In this document: positions 1,508-6,690 of the stretch, in pieces | Numbering within the stretch: the stretch's first letter is position 1 | How the letters are laid out: each line of letters starts with the position of its first letter | Assembly (NCBI GenBank): GCA_900769385.1 | Contig: CAAGGO010000236.1 | Span: 1-6,690, forward strand | Reading direction: 5' to 3' | Length of the DNA: 6,690 nt | DNA from: Rikenellaceae bacterium | GTDB taxonomy: Bacteria > Bacteroidota > Bacteroidia > Bacteroidales > UBA932 | Made by a program: the position numbers and the translations under genes | The notes under the pieces: generated by a model | The model's database searches: none | Seen by the model: only the letters and a program-made list of their open reading frames with translations | Told to the model about the DNA's origin: nothing

Positions 1508-1515
1508 CCCCCCCC
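1508..1515 (-). repeat. G8 homopolymer run (minus strand) after an ATG
   Basis: Eight C on the plus strand, read as ATG plus seven further G on the minus strand, lie in the 146-base gap between the primase and the 69-residue ORF. As written the frame from this ATG gives a 12-residue peptide. With one extra G it would read 34 codons, ending in KGSGQA across the terminator-like stem. There is no strong evidence that it is translated. Apart from this run and the stem-loop, nothing else is seen in the gap. Confidence 0.6.
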
Positions 1516-3021: not shown

Positions 3022-3938
3022 AGCGTCATTCCTCCTATATATTTTTCCAATGTTCCCACTACAGTGAGTATTGGTATTGTGTTTTCAATCTTTACCCCAT
3101 CCATAACTGTTTCCATGCAGTTGTTCAGCTCCTTCATGTATTTGAAGCTTTCGTGCTGTGAGCCTTGGCCAAGCCTCTGCCGGATGATTTCAACGTTCCT
3201 TTGGTCCAGTCGTCTCTGGCACTTGTAGCAGAGGATTGCCAAATATGCGTATGCTTTCACTTCATCCAGCTCAATGCCTACGTGCTGCCGGTTAATTTCA
3301 TTTTTTACAGTGGTGAAGAAGATGAAGAAACTTTGCCTGTGCTGCTCAATAACATTCATAACCTTCTCCCTTGCATAATCAATTATGTTTTGAGTCATTG
3401 ATTTGCGCAGTTCACAGTTAAATTCCACCCGGAATGATCTTATCAGCCTTGAAACCTTCTTCAATTTTTCAATCTTCATTTGCCTGCCCAGCTCCATTGC
3501 CTGTTCTGCATAATGCCAGGCAAGTTCTGCATACATATAAGGGTGGTAGGCCATCTGTATCCGTTCCTGTTCTGTGAACTGTGCTTTCAGGAACTCTTCT
3601 TCCTTCTCTTCCTGTTTCTTCTGGAATTCTTCTTTGAACTGTGTGAACTTGGCCTGCATTTCCTTCTTGTCTTTGCGCTTCCATTCAAACCTCTCTTCAT
3701 TGATCCTTACCATATCTTTGGGGTCAATGTTCTCTTTAGGTCTTACAAGAACCTCTCTGGCCATCTTCCCGAACTCGGCCACTTTCAATACAGTTGCGCC
3801 GCTTTTGATTTTATCGGAAGCAAGAACCAGGTAATATGTGCCCACTTTTACACGTGGCTGCACCTTATCTGAACACAGACGTTTGGTGATTTGAATGAGG
3901 TCACCCATTTTATAAGGAGCCGGTTGTTTCTTTTTCAT
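3018..3938 (-). CDS. Coiled-coil hypothetical protein (306 aa)
   Basis: No named family recognised. Residues about 11-80 read as a small beta-rich domain (MGDLIQITKRL, VKVGTYYLVLASD, VLVRPKENIDPKDMVRI) that may be an SH3-like barrel. Residues about 84-125 are very rich in K, E and Q (EEFQKKQEEKEEEFLKAQF) and should form a coiled coil or long helix. The remainder to 306 is mostly helical with aromatic patches (YHPYMYAELAWHYAEQAMEL at 131-150) and a C-terminal half rich in basic residues. There are no obvious catalytic motifs, signal peptide or membrane helix; the FFIFFTT stretch near 204-210 is too short to span a membrane. It overlaps both neighbours by ATGA, so it is expressed with the LuxR-type regulator and the MazG-like enzyme. 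M11 is an alternative start, but the ATGA junction favours 3938. Confidence 0.8.
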   Translation of the reverse strand: MKKKQPAPYKMGDLIQITKRLCSDKVQPRVKVGTYYLVLASDKIKSGATVLKVAEFGKMAREVLVRPKENIDPKDMVRINEERFEWKRKDKKEMQAKFTQFKEEFQKKQEEKEEEFLKAQFTEQERIQMAYHPYMYAELAWHYAEQAMELGRQMKIEKLKKVSRLIRSFRVEFNCELRKSMTQNIIDYAREKVMNVIEQHRQSFFIFFTTVKNEINRQHVGIELDEVKAYAYLAILCYKCQRRLDQRNVEIIRQRLGQGSQHESFKYMKELNNCMETVMDGVKIENTIPILTVVGTLEKYIGGMTL

Positions 3939-4504
3939 ACGCCGGCCTCCTGAAGTCTGGTGAGAAGATATGCCCTTGTCACATTCTTGCCGGTGATTGC
4001 ACGAACCTTGGCAACAGCATTGGTGAAGTGAGTTATGACTGTCGTAGCACTGATATTGAGTGCAGCAGCTATTTCTTTATCGGTGAATCCTTCACGCATA
4101 TACATCAGGCACTCCTGTTCACGTTTGGTAAACGGTGCAAGCAATTGTTTACAGAAGCATTTTGAGTACTGGCAGCTTGCACAGTGCGATGCTATTTCCA
4201 CGTTGGACCTTCCTGATGCTACATCAATATCAATATCAGCATCCACTGAACCGTACAAGCACCAGCACATGCGCTGTATTGTCTCTTCATGGCCGTATTG
4301 TGATGCCAGTAATGAGTACGCTTCGCCGTATTCCCTCAAGTTCTTGATTACTGCAAACTGGGCTGTTTTTGGAAGGGTGAAGAATGAGGTATGCATTTGC
4401 CCCTGGAAAATGAAATTTACCCTGTTCTTTGCTGAGGCCACTATCTCCAGGCCTGTGCTCTCTTGCTGAAGTACTGATGCAAGAGCTGACTGTATAGTTT
4501 TCAT
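3935..4504 (-). CDS. LuxR-type HTH transcriptional regulator with cysteine cluster
   Basis: Residues about 124-186 form a LuxR/GerE-type winged HTH: FTKREQECLMYMREGFTDKE, then IAAALNISATTVITHFTNAVAKV, with the recognition helix near 150-166. Just before it lies HCASCQYSKCFCKQ, giving a CxxCxxxxCxC cluster (C108, C111, C116, C118, with H107), which could bind zinc or an iron-sulfur centre. C80 and C82 (MCWCLYG) add two more cysteines. The N-terminal 100 residues are unlike known two-component receivers or autoinducer domains. It is probably a DNA-binding regulator of early or late phage genes, with activity possibly tied to metal or redox state; that last point is inference. Its ATG is preceded by a perfect tandem 12-bp repeat and a structured leader. 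Its stop overlaps the next start as ATGA. Confidence 0.85.
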   Translation of the reverse strand: MKTIQSALASVLQQESTGLEIVASAKNRVNFIFQGQMHTSFFTLPKTAQFAVIKNLREYGEAYSLLASQYGHEETIQRMCWCLYGSVDADIDIDVASGRSNVEIASHCASCQYSKCFCKQLLAPFTKREQECLMYMREGFTDKEIAAALNISATTVITHFTNAVAKVRAITGKNVTRAYLLTRLQEAGV

Positions 4505-4528
4505 AAGCTGCTGTAGAAGCTGCTGTAG
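4505..4528 (-). repeat. Perfect tandem 12-bp repeat abutting the LuxR-type start codon
   Basis: The plus-strand unit AAGCTGCTGTAG occurs twice in a row (4505-4516 and 4517-4528); on the mRNA it reads CTACAGCAGCTT twice, directly followed by ATG. There is no recognisable purine-rich ribosome site here. The units contain GCAGCTT, complementary to a segment of the leader at 4565-4572, so the two copies could be alternate pairing partners. Confidence 0.8.
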
Positions 4529-4533
4529 TTATA

Positions 4534-4588
4534 AAGGCCCGTATTATGGAGTTTCCTCCGGCTTGCAGCTTCTTCTCGCCCGGGCCTT
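4534..4588 (-). promoter_or_regulatory. Candidate structured 5' leader of the LuxR-type gene
   Basis: On the minus strand AAGGCCCG (4588-4581) pairs perfectly with CGGGCCTT (4541-4534). The enclosed segment can form GGAG-GAAA-CTCC (4559-4548), a hairpin with a GNRA tetraloop, and a GGC/GCC pairing. An 8-base loop segment GAAGCTGC (4572-4565) is exactly complementary to GCAGCTTC in the tandem repeat next to the start codon (4523-4516), so a pseudoknot or switch is possible. The stem is followed by only three T, so it is a poor terminator. Known riboswitch or ribozyme cores were not found. Together with the repeat it fills the 124-base gap between the HTH and LuxR-type genes. Confidence 0.45.
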
Positions 4589-4628
4589 GAAATGAGTATT
4601 TGGTTATTTTCTTTGCTTTTTTACCATC

Positions 4629-4778
4629 TTATTGAGCTTTTTTAAGCTCCCGTAGAATTCGCTTTCCTTTAGTTGTTCTTATTGGTTTACCATCTTCTTT
4701 TCTGTTCTTAATGTAGTAGACCATACGCCTTGAAACTTTAAGTTTTTTGGCTATGTCTGTTACTGAGCCGTAGTGCAT
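4629..4778 (-). CDS. Small HTH DNA-binding protein (49 aa), Cro-like position
   Basis: From ATG 4778 the product is a compact basic HTH protein. GSVTDIAKKLKVSRRMVYYI (about 4-23) fits helix-turn-helix spacing, with the recognition helix at SRRMVYYIKNR, followed by a basic tail rich in K and R (KGKRILRELKK). The frame is open upstream to an ATG at 4880, but that start would place the promoter and operator array inside the gene, so 4778 is preferred. It is the first gene leftward, divergent from the CI-like repressor, which is the location of a Cro-type early repressor; that role is inferred from position. It could alternatively bind the TGTTACA array to control its own operon. Confidence 0.65.
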   Translation of the reverse strand: MHYGSVTDIAKKLKVSRRMVYYIKNRKEDGKPIRTTKGKRILRELKKAQ

Positions 4779-4813
4779 TACAATATTTTTTGTATTTTCG
4801 TTGCTTAAAAAAC

Positions 4814-4845
4814 TTGTTACATTTGTTGTAACAATGTTTGTTACA
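4814..4845. promoter_or_regulatory. Operator array of three TGTTACA-type sites
   Basis: TGTTACA at 4815-4821, its reverse complement TGTAACA at 4827-4833, and TGTTACA again at 4839-4845 have centres exactly 12 bp apart. The first two, flanked by T/A, make TTGTTAC-7-GTAACAA dyad symmetry. The array lies just downstream of the likely leftward transcription start and overlaps a possible -33 element of the rightward promoter. It is a good candidate binding region for the small HTH protein or the CI-like repressor. Confidence 0.6.
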
Positions 4846-4870
4846 CTTGCAAAGTAAAGAATTACTCTTG
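4837..4870 (+). promoter_or_regulatory. Possible rightward promoter of the CI-like repressor
   Basis: TTTG (4837-4840) and TACTCTTG (4863-4870), one mismatch from TAnnTTTG, are 22 bases apart, slightly long for this promoter class. Transcription would begin near 4876, leaving about 50 bases to the repressor ATG at 4927. It overlaps the leftward promoter, so the two would compete. The assignment is tentative. Confidence 0.3.
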
Positions 4871-4880
4871 AATAATTCAA
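4850..4880 (-). promoter_or_regulatory. Likely leftward promoter of the early operon (Bacteroidetes type)
   Basis: On the minus strand TTG (4880-4878) is followed after 20 bases by TTACTTTG (4857-4850), one mismatch from the Bacteroidetes TAnnTTTG -7 element at near-ideal spacing. Transcription would start near 4840-4845, inside the TGTTACA array, leaving a leader of about 65 bases to the HTH start at 4778. The -33 element lies within the TTCAAGA palindrome, so the repressor could block it directly. Confidence 0.5.
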
Positions 4881-4914
4881 GAAAAAATCAAGAAAGTTTA
4901 TAAAAAATTCAAGA
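4866..4914. promoter_or_regulatory. Operator array of four TTCAAGA-type sites
   Basis: A 7-3-7 palindrome, TCTTGAA at 4866-4872 with TTCAAGA at 4876-4882, is followed by ATCAAGA (4887-4893) and TTCAAGA (4908-4914). Site centres are 10, 11 and 21 bp apart, i.e. on one face of the helix, which fits cooperative repressor binding. The array covers the -33 region of the leftward promoter and the start region of the rightward one, ending just before the repressor gene. It is the best candidate for CI-like autoregulation. Confidence 0.6.
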
Positions 4915-4926
4915 ATTATTATTTAT

Positions 4927-5319
4927 ATGACAGATATTCAGATACTTGAAGAATTGAAAAAAATCTTAGGATTGTCTTTCAATTCCTTAGCAAAGGAGGT
5001 TGGATTGAAAAGTCCTCAGATATTCTATGATATTAAAGCTGGTAAGTGTGGAATATCTAAGGATCTTGCAACTAAGATTCACGAAAAATTCTTGAATGTT
5101 AATATGGCTTGGCTATTGACAGGTGAAGGTGATATGCTTAACGCAGCACCTGTGCAAGTGCAGGAAAAAGCAGATGACTCAGCAATTACATTAGCACTTA
5201 ATATGCTTAATGAGCAGCTGAAGGTTAAGGATGAACAGATAGCAAAGCTTCATCAGCTGCTTGAGATTAGATTAAAAGGGGATGTCCACGAGGATGCCGC
5301 CTGTGCAGATGTCGGATAA
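4927..5319 (+). CDS. CI-like phage repressor, XRE-type HTH
   Basis: Residues about 5-55 form a lambda-repressor-like HTH. LGLSFNSLAKEVGLKSPQIF (14-33) covers helices 2 and 3, followed by YDIKAGKCGISKDLATKIHE. The segment NMAWLLTGEGDML (59-71) is a familiar end of this domain in phage and Bacteroidetes repressors. After an alanine- and glutamine-rich linker, residues about 87-115 (LALNMLNEQLKVKDEQIAKL and following) show heptad leucines and should form a dimerising coiled coil. There is no LexA-type S24 peptidase domain, so induction would not use RecA-stimulated self-cleavage as in lambda CI; an anti-repressor or host signal is more likely. It probably binds the TTCAAGA array upstream. It is followed after 30 bases by the pseudo-exonuclease genes, likely co-transcribed. 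Confidence 0.85.
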   Translation: MTDIQILEELKKILGLSFNSLAKEVGLKSPQIFYDIKAGKCGISKDLATKIHEKFLNVNMAWLLTGEGDMLNAAPVQVQEKADDSAITLALNMLNEQLKVKDEQIAKLHQLLEIRLKGDVHEDAACADVG

Positions 5320-5349
5320 TTTTTGGAATCAGATTAGATAGATATTGAT

Positions 5350-6228
5350 ATGGATTTTGCAGCTTTTTATCTTATTTCTGCCAATGAACACAGAACAAGT
5401 ATTTGTAATGTTGGTTTAACTATTGTCAAGGATAATTGTATAGATAAGCATTTTTCTTACTATGTAAGACCTGTGCCTTATGAGTTTGATTCATACAATG
5501 TTGATTTATATTCATTGGATGAAACTGCCTATGTTTCTGCAAAATCTTTTCCTGAAGTGTGGGCAGATGTAAAGGAGAAAATTGGCAAACTGCCTATGTT
5601 TACTTTTTTTACTTCCTTTCAGAATAGCCTTTACAAGCAATCTATGGCAGCATATAATATTGAATTTACATCAGAATATAAGCCTGAAGATGTCTGGAAA
5701 TTGGCCTATGGTTATAATCCTGATTTTCTATGTCACAGCTTTAAATACGTTGTAAGTAAATTGCACATTCCTGTTGATTTCTCTTTACCTTCAAGTATGT
5801 CAGATGCTGTAGCCTTTATGCTTCTCCATTATGCTGCTTCTCTCAATGCAACATCACTGGCTGAGTTATATGATAGATTACCTAGTATCTATCACGGGGG
5901 TGGAGTCATTAAAAAGTCAATTTTCTCAGGTGATGTAGAGATAGAAGAAAGCGAACTTGTAAAAGATAGGTTCTTCTGCTTTACAGGTGAAATGGAGTAT
6001 TGCAAGAGAGATGATGCAAAAAGGATTGTTATTGAGTCAGGTGGCCAGACTACAGATTCTGTTACATCAAAAACAAATTATCTTGTTATAGGCAAGAAGG
6101 AATATATCAATGAGGATGGCAAACCTTCAAGTAAGGTTCAGAAAGCAATGAAATTAAGGGCTGAGAACAAGCCTATTTCTATAATTTCTGAAGAGGAGTT
6201 CCTTCAAATGGTTGTTATAAAAAGGTAG
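5350..6228 (+). CDS. Degenerate DnaQ-like (DEDD) exonuclease domain fused to a BRCT domain
   Basis: Residues 1-175 align by eye with a bacterial 3'-5' exonuclease domain. MDFAAFYLISAN matches the usual MDFVAIDFETAN, so the catalytic D and E are replaced by Y7 and I9. TFFTSFQ (85-91) matches the HNASFD motif with the aspartate replaced by Q91. The last motif HRALSDA corresponds to PSSMSDA (147-153), where the histidine is P147 and only D152 remains. CHSFKYVVSKLHI (128-140) matches the HSLKTLA helix. Residues about 205-288 form a BRCT domain (FFCFTGEME, the GG pair at 231-232, SKTNYLVIGKK, ISIISEEEFLQM), as in DNA ligase and exonuclease-BRCT fusions, which bind DNA ends or phosphoproteins. The protein is therefore probably a non-catalytic DNA-end binder rather than an active nuclease. 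Start 5350 is supported by the motif alignment at residue 1. A paralogous-looking gene follows after 3 bases. Confidence 0.85.
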   Translation: MDFAAFYLISANEHRTSICNVGLTIVKDNCIDKHFSYYVRPVPYEFDSYNVDLYSLDETAYVSAKSFPEVWADVKEKIGKLPMFTFFTSFQNSLYKQSMAAYNIEFTSEYKPEDVWKLAYGYNPDFLCHSFKYVVSKLHIPVDFSLPSSMSDAVAFMLLHYAASLNATSLAELYDRLPSIYHGGGVIKKSIFSGDVEIEESELVKDRFFCFTGEMEYCKRDDAKRIVIESGGQTTDSVTSKTNYLVIGKKEYINEDGKPSSKVQKAMKLRAENKPISIISEEEFLQMVVIKR

Positions 6229-6231
6229 CCT

Positions 6232-6690
6232 ATGTTTAACAGAAGCCATTATAGTTCTCCTGTGTACATTTCTGAACCAGAATTGATGGAAAGCAATAGT
6301 TTTGTATCCTTCAATTTTGAACAGGCGTGTCCGGACTATTATGCTTGTAAGGTTGCTTTTGTTGTTGTTGAAAATAGCTCTATCGTTAAAGAAAAAGAAT
6401 ATCTGATACAGCCACCAAATAACGACTATCATAGTTCGTTTTCTTTATGTCACGGCATAACTGCTGAAGATACGAGACGGCTATGGCAATTTGATAAATT
6501 GTGGCCAATCCTCAGATCATACTTGAGAGATAAATTTATAATCGCTCACACTTTACGTTCAGAATTACAGATTCTTAATAAGAGCCTACGGTTTTATGGC
6601 TTACGCGGAGTGAGAATAAAAAACAGCTTGTGTACAGCAGAACTTTACTCTCATAATACAATATATGACATTGCTCGTGTTTTAGGTCTC
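6232..6690 (+). CDS. Second DnaQ-like (DEDD) exonuclease-fold protein, partial at right edge
   Basis: The frame is open from ATG 6232 through the window end (153 codons). After about 20 unrelated N-terminal residues, FVSFNFEQA (24-32) matches FVAIDFETA: the catalytic aspartate is N28, while E30 is kept. CHGITAEDT (73-81) is the well-conserved HGI-type segment missing in its neighbour. FIIAHTLRSELQIL (102-115) matches VAHNASFDMSVL, keeping H106 and carrying E111 in place of aspartate. C134 and LYSHNTIYDIARVLGL match the later LKTLAEYLGI helix; the last catalytic motif and any C-terminal domain lie beyond the window. Activity is doubtful but less clearly lost than in the upstream gene. The 3-base gap points to one transcript with the BRCT protein and the repressor. 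Codon use is AT-rich like that gene. Confidence 0.7.
   Translation, partial: MFNRSHYSSPVYISEPELMESNSFVSFNFEQACPDYYACKVAFVVVENSSIVKEKEYLIQPPNNDYHSSFSLCHGITAEDTRRLWQFDKLWPILRSYLRDKFIIAHTLRSELQILNKSLRFYGLRGVRIKNSLCTAELYSHNTIYDIARVLGL

What the first reader, a model, noticed from the sequence alone, without database searches (positions are those of the whole stretch)
5350..6690. Tandem pair of apparent pseudo-exonucleases downstream of a phage repressor
Two adjacent genes, 3 bases apart, both have the DnaQ/DEDD exonuclease fold by motif alignment, and both have substitutions at catalytic positions (first: Y7, I9, Q91, P147; second: N28, E111). Two differently decayed copies kept as full open frames beside a repressor suggest selected non-catalytic roles, such as binding DNA ends, shielding phage DNA from host nucleases, or joining an immunity function expressed in the lysogen. 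Full open frames argue against simple decay. The combined role is inference.
Basis: partly seen in the sequence, partly recalled or inferred. Interest (0 to 1): 0.75.

Follow-up and report, generated by a model that had tools for sequence, protein, structure and literature searches.

The report
Twin dead exonucleases beside phage repressor
Two neighbouring phage genes next to a lysogeny repressor encode predicted relatives of DNA-trimming exonucleases that have lost most of the catalytic residues their relatives keep, so they likely bind DNA ends or partner proteins without cutting; this looks like a disarmed version of an accessory gene found in many other temperate phages.

Summary
ORF1 (5350-6228) and ORF2 (6232 to the window's end) are open frames 3 bases apart, 30 bases behind a short phage repressor gene. 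Both are predicted with good confidence to adopt the DnaQ/DEDDh exonuclease fold. Corrections: ORF1 also carries an intact BRCT domain, and the two are not recent duplicates.

ORF1 belongs to a known architecture, an exonuclease-BRCT protein behind the repressor of temperate phages; in Campylobacter CJIE4 it was detected by proteomics. In the relatives aligned here the catalytic residues are nearly always kept, so this phage carries a disarmed version, twice. A relative at a similar place in another phage contig (L030) has separately lost two catalytic residues.

Most likely: co-transcribed, lysogen-expressed, non-cutting accessory proteins, perhaps with an immunity-type role. Residue loss and location are shown, the fold is predicted, and non-catalysis, co-expression and function are inferred. 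New variant of a known kind, moderate interest.

The parts
5350..6228 (+). ORF1, 292 aa: predicted inactive DnaQ-like domain (about residues 1-180) plus BRCT domain
   Evidence: fold; homologues
5368..5376 (+). ORF1 Exo I positions: Y7 and I9 where relatives have D and E
   Evidence: D 39/40, E 40/40 in relatives
5620..5622 (+). ORF1 Exo II position: Q91 where relatives have D
   Evidence: D 38/40
5788..5805 (+). ORF1 Exo III positions: P147 where relatives have H; D152 kept
   Evidence: H 40/40, D 39/40
5965..6204 (+). BRCT domain of ORF1 (residues 206-285); 16 of 17 conserved BRCT positions kept
6232..6690 (+). ORF2, first 153 aa: second predicted inactive DnaQ-like protein (200 aa in homologue P0003, no BRCT), runs off the window
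6313..6321 (+). ORF2 Exo I positions: N28 (relatives D 19/19) and E30 kept
6562..6564 (+). ORF2 Exo II position: E111 (relatives D 17/19)
4927..5319 (+). short CI-like repressor, 130 aa, no S24 peptidase match
   Evidence: (phrog_8 6.9e-9)
4814..4925 (.). divergent switch region with two operator-like repeat families (TTGTTACA at 4814-4849; TTCAAGAA-type half sites at 4866-4925)
   Evidence: function inferred
4629..4880 (-). small HTH protein (Cro-like position), divergent from the repressor
   Evidence: weak HTH matches
3935..4504 (-). LuxR/GerE-type regulator; LuxR-like genes (by eye) lie in a similar place in phage contigs L012, L144 and L030

Best explanation
The window holds two adjacent open frames directly behind a phage repressor gene whose predicted DnaQ-like domains each lack or alter four of the five catalytic residues that nearly all aligned relatives keep (for ORF2 two of these are read from homologues), so both are predicted to be non-cutting proteins that likely serve as accessory, probably immunity-type, DNA-end or partner-binding factors made in the lysogen. 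ORF1 is related to the exonuclease-BRCT gene that many temperate phages carry behind the repressor (shown by homology and gene order). Its BRCT domain is conserved while its active site, the HGI motif and the Exo II histidine are gone, so the BRCT domain is inferred to be the part that works, with the DnaQ fold as a scaffold. ORF2 has no BRCT, keeps the HG and AH motifs and is inferred to bind 3' ends or nucleotides without efficient cleavage. The 30- and 3-base gaps suggest one transcript with the repressor, hence expression in the lysogen (inferred). A physical ORF1-ORF2 complex is a guess, based on the 3-base spacing and on dimers being common among DEDDh enzymes (recalled).
For: Fold. Residue loss against relatives. 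Same losses in other records: ORF1/P0001 (13 differences, none at the five positions), ORF2/P0003/P0004. Uneven loss in ORF1: 1 of 5 catalytic, 11 of 19 other exonuclease and 16 of 17 BRCT conserved positions kept; exonuclease versus BRCT p = 0.005, catalytic versus all others p = 0.028. Location: repressor, exonuclease-BRCT, then integrase in phages LH1, phi12, Javan549 and phiARI0923; in 38 loci scanned (of 48; L003 and L031 are probably one gene) the next gene upstream matches HTH_3 in 13, S24 in 6 and M78 in 4, and of 63 downstream ORFs over 200 aa (of 67) 16 match Phage_integrase and 7 Resolvase. Expression of a homologue: CJIE4 ORF6 to ORF10 proteins detected by iTRAQ in the two strains that carry them (PMC3995785, passages). 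A further loss: L030, behind a short repressor-like gene with one small ORF between, has lost the Exo II and Exo III aspartates while a 75% identical relative keeps them. Candidate-defence family: PADLOC PDC-S48 matches the Staphylococcus LH1 homologue at 5e-35, CJIE4 at 2.6e-21, P0003 at 4.6e-8, ORF1 at 4.1e-4.
Against: No activity, binding or expression was measured. The PDC-S48 match of ORF1 is weak and lies in the BRCT part; no paper naming PDC-S48 was found. ORF2 keeps three acids (E30, E111, E164), and E at the Exo II position also occurs in L074 and L087, whose other catalytic residues are kept, so ORF2 may keep some activity. Neutral simulation without indels leaves 6% of ORF2 window parts at 71% identity and 45% of ORF1 copies at 13 changes without a stop (400 runs each): weak evidence for selection. 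Codon usage does not favour the ORF2 frame. None of 11 fetched loci around primase relatives holds an ORF1 or ORF2 match, though several end near the repressor, so the pair is not a fixed part of this phage type. In lactococcal phage Dub35A three genes between integrase and repressor gave no resistance when tested (PMC7693887, passages). The integrase side lies outside the window.
Confidence: 0.42

Rival explanations
1. The pair forms a DNA-damage input for a repressor that cannot cleave itself: the window's repressor lacks the S24 domain, so a non-cutting end or nick reader next to it could trigger induction as an antirepressor.
For: No S24 match in the window's repressor, while a relative in L012 (63% identical over residues 1-71) is fused to S24; the CJIE4 repressor in front of an exonuclease-BRCT gene is also short (127 aa, Phage_CI_repr only), and phiARI0923 has a gene annotated metallo-protease between its regulator and exonuclease-BRCT.
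Against: S24 proteins also lie directly upstream of exonuclease-BRCT genes (6 of 38 scanned). A related short repressor without Pfam match occurs in L144, whose contig holds no exonuclease match but ends about 250 bases after it. No direct evidence of repressor contact.
Confidence: 0.2
2. ORF2 is still a weak exonuclease and ORF1 is its BRCT-bearing partner that targets it, so the pair together works like one ordinary exonuclease-BRCT protein split in two.
For: ORF2 keeps three acids and the HG and AH motifs; its nearest canonical kin are exonuclease-BRCT proteins (P0006-P0009), so ORF2 probably lost BRCT while ORF1 kept it.
Against: ORF2 also lost the general-base histidine (S159) and the first aspartate (N28), both invariant in 19 of 19 relatives.
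Confidence: 0.15
3. The proteins cap phage DNA ends and shield them from host nucleases such as RecBCD/AddAB, as Gam-type end binders do.
For: DnaQ folds bind 3' ends and BRCT domains can bind nicks or ends (recalled); ORF1's BRCT resembles those of DNA ligase and RFC1.
Against: The position behind the repressor predicts expression in the lysogen rather than early in lytic growth (inferred). ORF1 has lost the HGI motif and the Exo II histidine.
Confidence: 0.13
4. Simple decay: two formerly active genes drifting without function.
For: Very long stem branches in the tree (3.17 and 2.76 changes per column); simulated neutral drift does not exclude it.
Against: Open frames in the copies seen (window, P0001, P0003, P0004), short branches within each family after the long stem, conserved BRCT, and an N-terminal extension shared by ORF2 and P0004.
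Confidence: 0.08

Closest known systems
Exonuclease-BRCT proteins of temperate-phage lysogeny modules (e.g. Staphylococcus phages LH1 and phi12, Streptococcus phage Javan549, Campylobacter CJIE4 ORF8; NCBIfam NF004844)
   Same: Same two-domain layout and similar length (ORF1), same place behind the repressor
   Different: They keep DEDDh; ORF1 lost four of five; ORF2 has no BRCT and comes as a second gene
PADLOC phage-defence candidate PDC-S48
   Same: Profile matches canonical relatives strongly and P0003 moderately
   Different: ORF1 matches only weakly through BRCT; candidate status, no paper naming it found
pExoDinG, DinG helicases with a pseudo-exonuclease domain (PMC11981726, passages)
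   Same: DnaQ-like domain with incomplete metal site, predicted inactive
   Different: No helicase here; free-standing phage proteins
diDNases, DEDD nucleases of genomic islands with suggested immunity role (PMC11706625, passages)
   Same: DEDD fold on mobile elements, expressed from a prophage in one case
   Different: They are active dinucleases

Membership tests
DEDDh 3'-5' exonuclease (DnaQ fold) | DnaQ fold | tested here: met
DEDDh 3'-5' exonuclease (DnaQ fold) | DEDDh catalytic residues | tested here: not met
   ORF1 Y/I/Q/P/D; ORF2 family N/E/E/S/E, the last two from P0003 and P0004
DEDDh 3'-5' exonuclease (DnaQ fold) | metal-dependent cleavage | not testable with these tools
   needs purified protein
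Lysogeny-module exonuclease-BRCT family (NF004844-like) | exonuclease fold plus C-terminal BRCT in one protein | tested here: met
   ORF1 only; ORF2 homologues end at 192-200 aa without BRCT
Lysogeny-module exonuclease-BRCT family (NF004844-like) | NCBIfam score above curated cut-off | tested here: not met
   ORF1 114.9 bits, P0003 61.4 bits versus 373; canonical LH1 (218.6) and P0002 (221.3) also fail it
Lysogeny-module exonuclease-BRCT family (NF004844-like) | gene directly behind the repressor, same strand | tested here: met
   30-base gap after 4927-5319
Lysogeny-module exonuclease-BRCT family (NF004844-like) | integrase downstream | not testable with these tools
   window ends inside ORF2 and no genome is held
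PADLOC PDC-S48 | profile match over most of the protein | tested here: inconclusive
   P0003 E 4.6e-8 over residues 44-178; ORF1 E 4.1e-4 over residues 197-288 only
pExoDinG | DinG helicase domains behind the pseudo-exonuclease domain | tested here: not met
   ORF1 ends in BRCT at 292 aa; ORF2 homologues end at 192-200 aa
Self-cleaving CI/LexA-type repressor (for the window's repressor) | Peptidase S24 domain | tested here: not met
   130 aa, no S24 match at E 0.1; related repressor in L012 has it

The most novel reading that the evidence does not exclude
Prophage exonuclease-BRCT genes are repeatedly disarmed in Bacteroidota phages and turned into non-cutting DNA-end readers; in this phage two of them form a lysogen-borne sensor that tells a repressor without its own protease about DNA damage or an incoming phage.
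Probability: 0.18. Interest if true: 0.72.

Novelty: new variant of a known kind. Interest (0 to 1): 0.43.

Why it matters
Exonuclease-BRCT genes sit between repressor and integrase in Staphylococcus and Streptococcus phages, behind the repressor in Campylobacter CJIE4, and in many uncultivated phages; the family matches a candidate defence profile, yet no function was found in the papers listed by my searches. Naturally disarmed members that stay intact separate what the fold and the BRCT domain do from what cutting does, so they make it directly testable whether the role of this gene family in the lysogen needs catalysis at all.

Tried and rejected
Close relatives of ORF1, the ORF2 fragment, the primase and the 306-aa protein in IMG/VR: none found; ORF1 in the genome collection: none. 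DNA similarity of the whole window to phage and plasmid records: none. No Rfam match at gathering scores. A recent tandem duplication of ORF1 and ORF2: rejected. P0005, from a 663-base contig, does not align with ORF2 in its N-terminal part and equals P0004 in its C-terminal part; it was dropped as a probable chimera. A sigma-70 promoter and terminator scan of 4500-6690 found about what shuffles give (10 versus mean 7.6; 1 versus mean 1.1) and cannot decide on co-transcription. Codon usage favoured frame 0 for the repressor and ORF1 but not for the ORF2 piece, so coding of ORF2 rests on its homologues. The catalytic survey (73 rows) was seeded by a pattern over the Exo I motif that allowed D/Y and E/I, so it favours canonical relatives, and only the best 80 of 120 loci were kept. 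A second survey was seeded on the BRCT part (19 loci; 13 distinct proteins, 12 with an exonuclease part): 11 of 12 keep all five residues. The twelfth is L030, which was itself one of the four seed sequences, so it is no measure of frequency. In one search the automatic columns for the last two residues were shifted by the aligner; those two were read from the printed motif blocks. A search for further L030-like proteins found only L030. Only 1 of 90 loci with a match holds a second exonuclease match elsewhere in the fetched stretch (L062).

Not in print: the listings shown for searches (open-licence PMC papers; long lists cut at 15) held no title or abstract start on this pair or on inactive exonuclease-BRCT proteins of prophages. 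Papers seen as passages: PMC3995785, PMC7693887, PMC11706625, PMC11981726; no whole paper was read.

Full report
What was checked. The window (6690 bases) comes from a record for which no whole genome is held. Its left two thirds carry minus-strand genes: a Toprim-type primase-like protein (open at base 2; weak Pfam matches), small proteins, a pyrophosphatase-like protein, a 306-aa protein, a LuxR/GerE-type regulator and a small HTH protein. On the plus strand follow a short repressor-like gene (4927-5319), ORF1 (5350-6228) and ORF2 (6232 to the end). This looks like the divergent lysogeny switch of a temperate phage. Hints of the host are few: the only genome-collection match of the repressor is in a Bacteroides MAG (66% over residues 1-71), and among 393 sampled genomes of that order the primase's best match is 50% identical. 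Other orders were not searched for it.

Residues. In the alignment of 42 proteins (ORF1, its 96% identical sibling P0001 and 40 relatives), D7, E9, D91, H147 and D152 are kept in 39, 40, 38, 40 and 39 of 40. ORF1 and P0001 have Y, I, Q, P and D. The HGI motif (YSL) and the Exo II histidine (F86) are lost too, while 16 of 17 conserved BRCT positions stand. P0003 and P0004 read N28, E30, E111, S159, E164 where 19 relatives have D (19), E (19), D (17), H (19), D (18); they keep H74, G75, A105 and H106, but have also changed other conserved positions such as T31, N33 and S37. The 20-residue N-terminal extension of ORF2, with YISEP, is shared by P0004. ORF1 is therefore very probably inactive; ORF2 probably so.

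How unusual this is. In a first survey of 73 rows only ORF1, P0001 and ORF2 depart at the two Exo I positions, apart from one fragment without that part, but that survey was seeded on Exo I. A second survey seeded on the BRCT part gave 12 distinct proteins with an exonuclease part, 11 with all five residues; the twelfth, L030, was in the seed. L030 is still telling: it has a LuxR-like regulator and a small gene divergent from a short repressor-like gene, then one 63-aa ORF and exonuclease-BRCT, and that protein has lost the Exo II and Exo III aspartates while its 75% identical relative L112, from a Bacteroidales genome, is canonical. The regulator and repressor of L030 match the window's only marginally (E 0.006 and 6e-4; no Pfam match for the repressor), so the similarity is mainly of layout. 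In 393 sampled Bacteroidales genomes, 13 have an ORF1 match at E 1e-12 or better; the five full-length exonuclease-BRCT genes read there are canonical, two of them next to a gene that looks like ligA by eye.

Location. In annotated phages the exonuclease-BRCT gene follows the repressor and precedes the integrase: LH1, phi12, Javan549 and, with a metallo-protease gene between, phiARI0923; in satellite Javan542 the upstream gene is annotated hypothetical. Of 48 loci examined by simple ORF calling, 40 have a same-strand gene within 600 bases upstream; of the 38 scanned, 13 match HTH_3, 12 HTH_31, 6 S24 and 4 M78 (classes overlap; L003 and L031 are probably one gene). Of 63 downstream ORFs over 200 aa scanned, 16 match Phage_integrase and 7 Resolvase. 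In C. jejuni CJIE4 a cassette of repressor (127 aa), ORF7, exonuclease, ORF9 and KAP ATPase replaces another cassette, and all five proteins were detected by iTRAQ in the two plate-grown strains that carry it (PMC3995785, passages). Genes between integrase and repressor include known superinfection-exclusion genes in lactococcal phages, but three such genes of Dub35A gave no resistance when tested (PMC7693887, passages).

Origin. ORF1 and ORF2 do not group with each other; each sits on a very long stem (3.17 and 2.76 changes per column against a median end branch of 0.55) with short branches inside, and most deep forks are unresolved. ORF2's nearest canonical kin are exonuclease-BRCT proteins P0006-P0009, one of them from a Prevotella MAG, at 30-32% identity, so it likely lost a BRCT domain. 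L062 shows that two DEDDh proteins around one repressor occur elsewhere, there with canonical residues (1 of 90 loci).

Mechanism. Shown: gene layout, residue loss shared between records, BRCT conservation, family location. Predicted: the fold. Inferred: no cutting; one transcript with the repressor; expression in the lysogen; a binding role. BRCT conservation in ORF1 points to BRCT as the working part, and the kept HG and AH motifs in ORF2 point to 3'-end or nucleotide binding. An immunity-type role is preferred because of the location and the PDC-S48 match of the family, with an antirepressor role as the main rival, since the repressor lacks S24.

Limits. ORF2's C-terminal part is read from homologues only; P0003 comes without a named source. 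Selection was not measured at codon level; simulated neutral drift without indels leaves 6% (ORF2 part) and 45% (ORF1) of frames open.

Noticed in passing
L030:3269-5912: Exonuclease-BRCT gene behind a short repressor-like gene that has lost the Exo II and Exo III aspartates while a 75% identical relative (L112) is canonical: a separate partial loss of catalytic residues in a similar locus.
   Followed up: yes
window 4927-5319: Repressor of 130 aa without S24 match; its first 71 residues are 63% identical to a repressor with S24 in L012, and a related 132-aa repressor without Pfam match lies in L144.
   Followed up: partly
window 4814-4925: Two different families of operator-like repeats between the divergent HTH gene and the repressor gene (TTGTTACA and TTCAAGAA-type sites).
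   Followed up: partly
window 1508-1515 and 2061-2069: Two runs of C (8 and 9 bases); the second lies inside a small minus-strand frame (1888-2088) and could be phase-variable or a sequencing artefact.
   Followed up: no
L004:2972-5942 and L010:3197-6650: A KAP-family P-loop ATPase gene one gene away from the exonuclease-BRCT gene in two different phages (Campylobacter CJIE4 and a human-gut phage scaffold).
   Followed up: partly
L062:4803-9470: One locus with an exonuclease-BRCT gene and a second DEDDh exonuclease carrying a SWIM zinc finger on either side of an S24-like repressor (S24 by eye), both exonucleases with canonical residues.
   Followed up: partly
L109:6396-9836, L110:6680-10877: Chromosomal Bacteroidales exonuclease-BRCT genes lie next to a ligA-like gene (by eye), whose BRCT end also matches ORF1's BRCT.
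   Followed up: no
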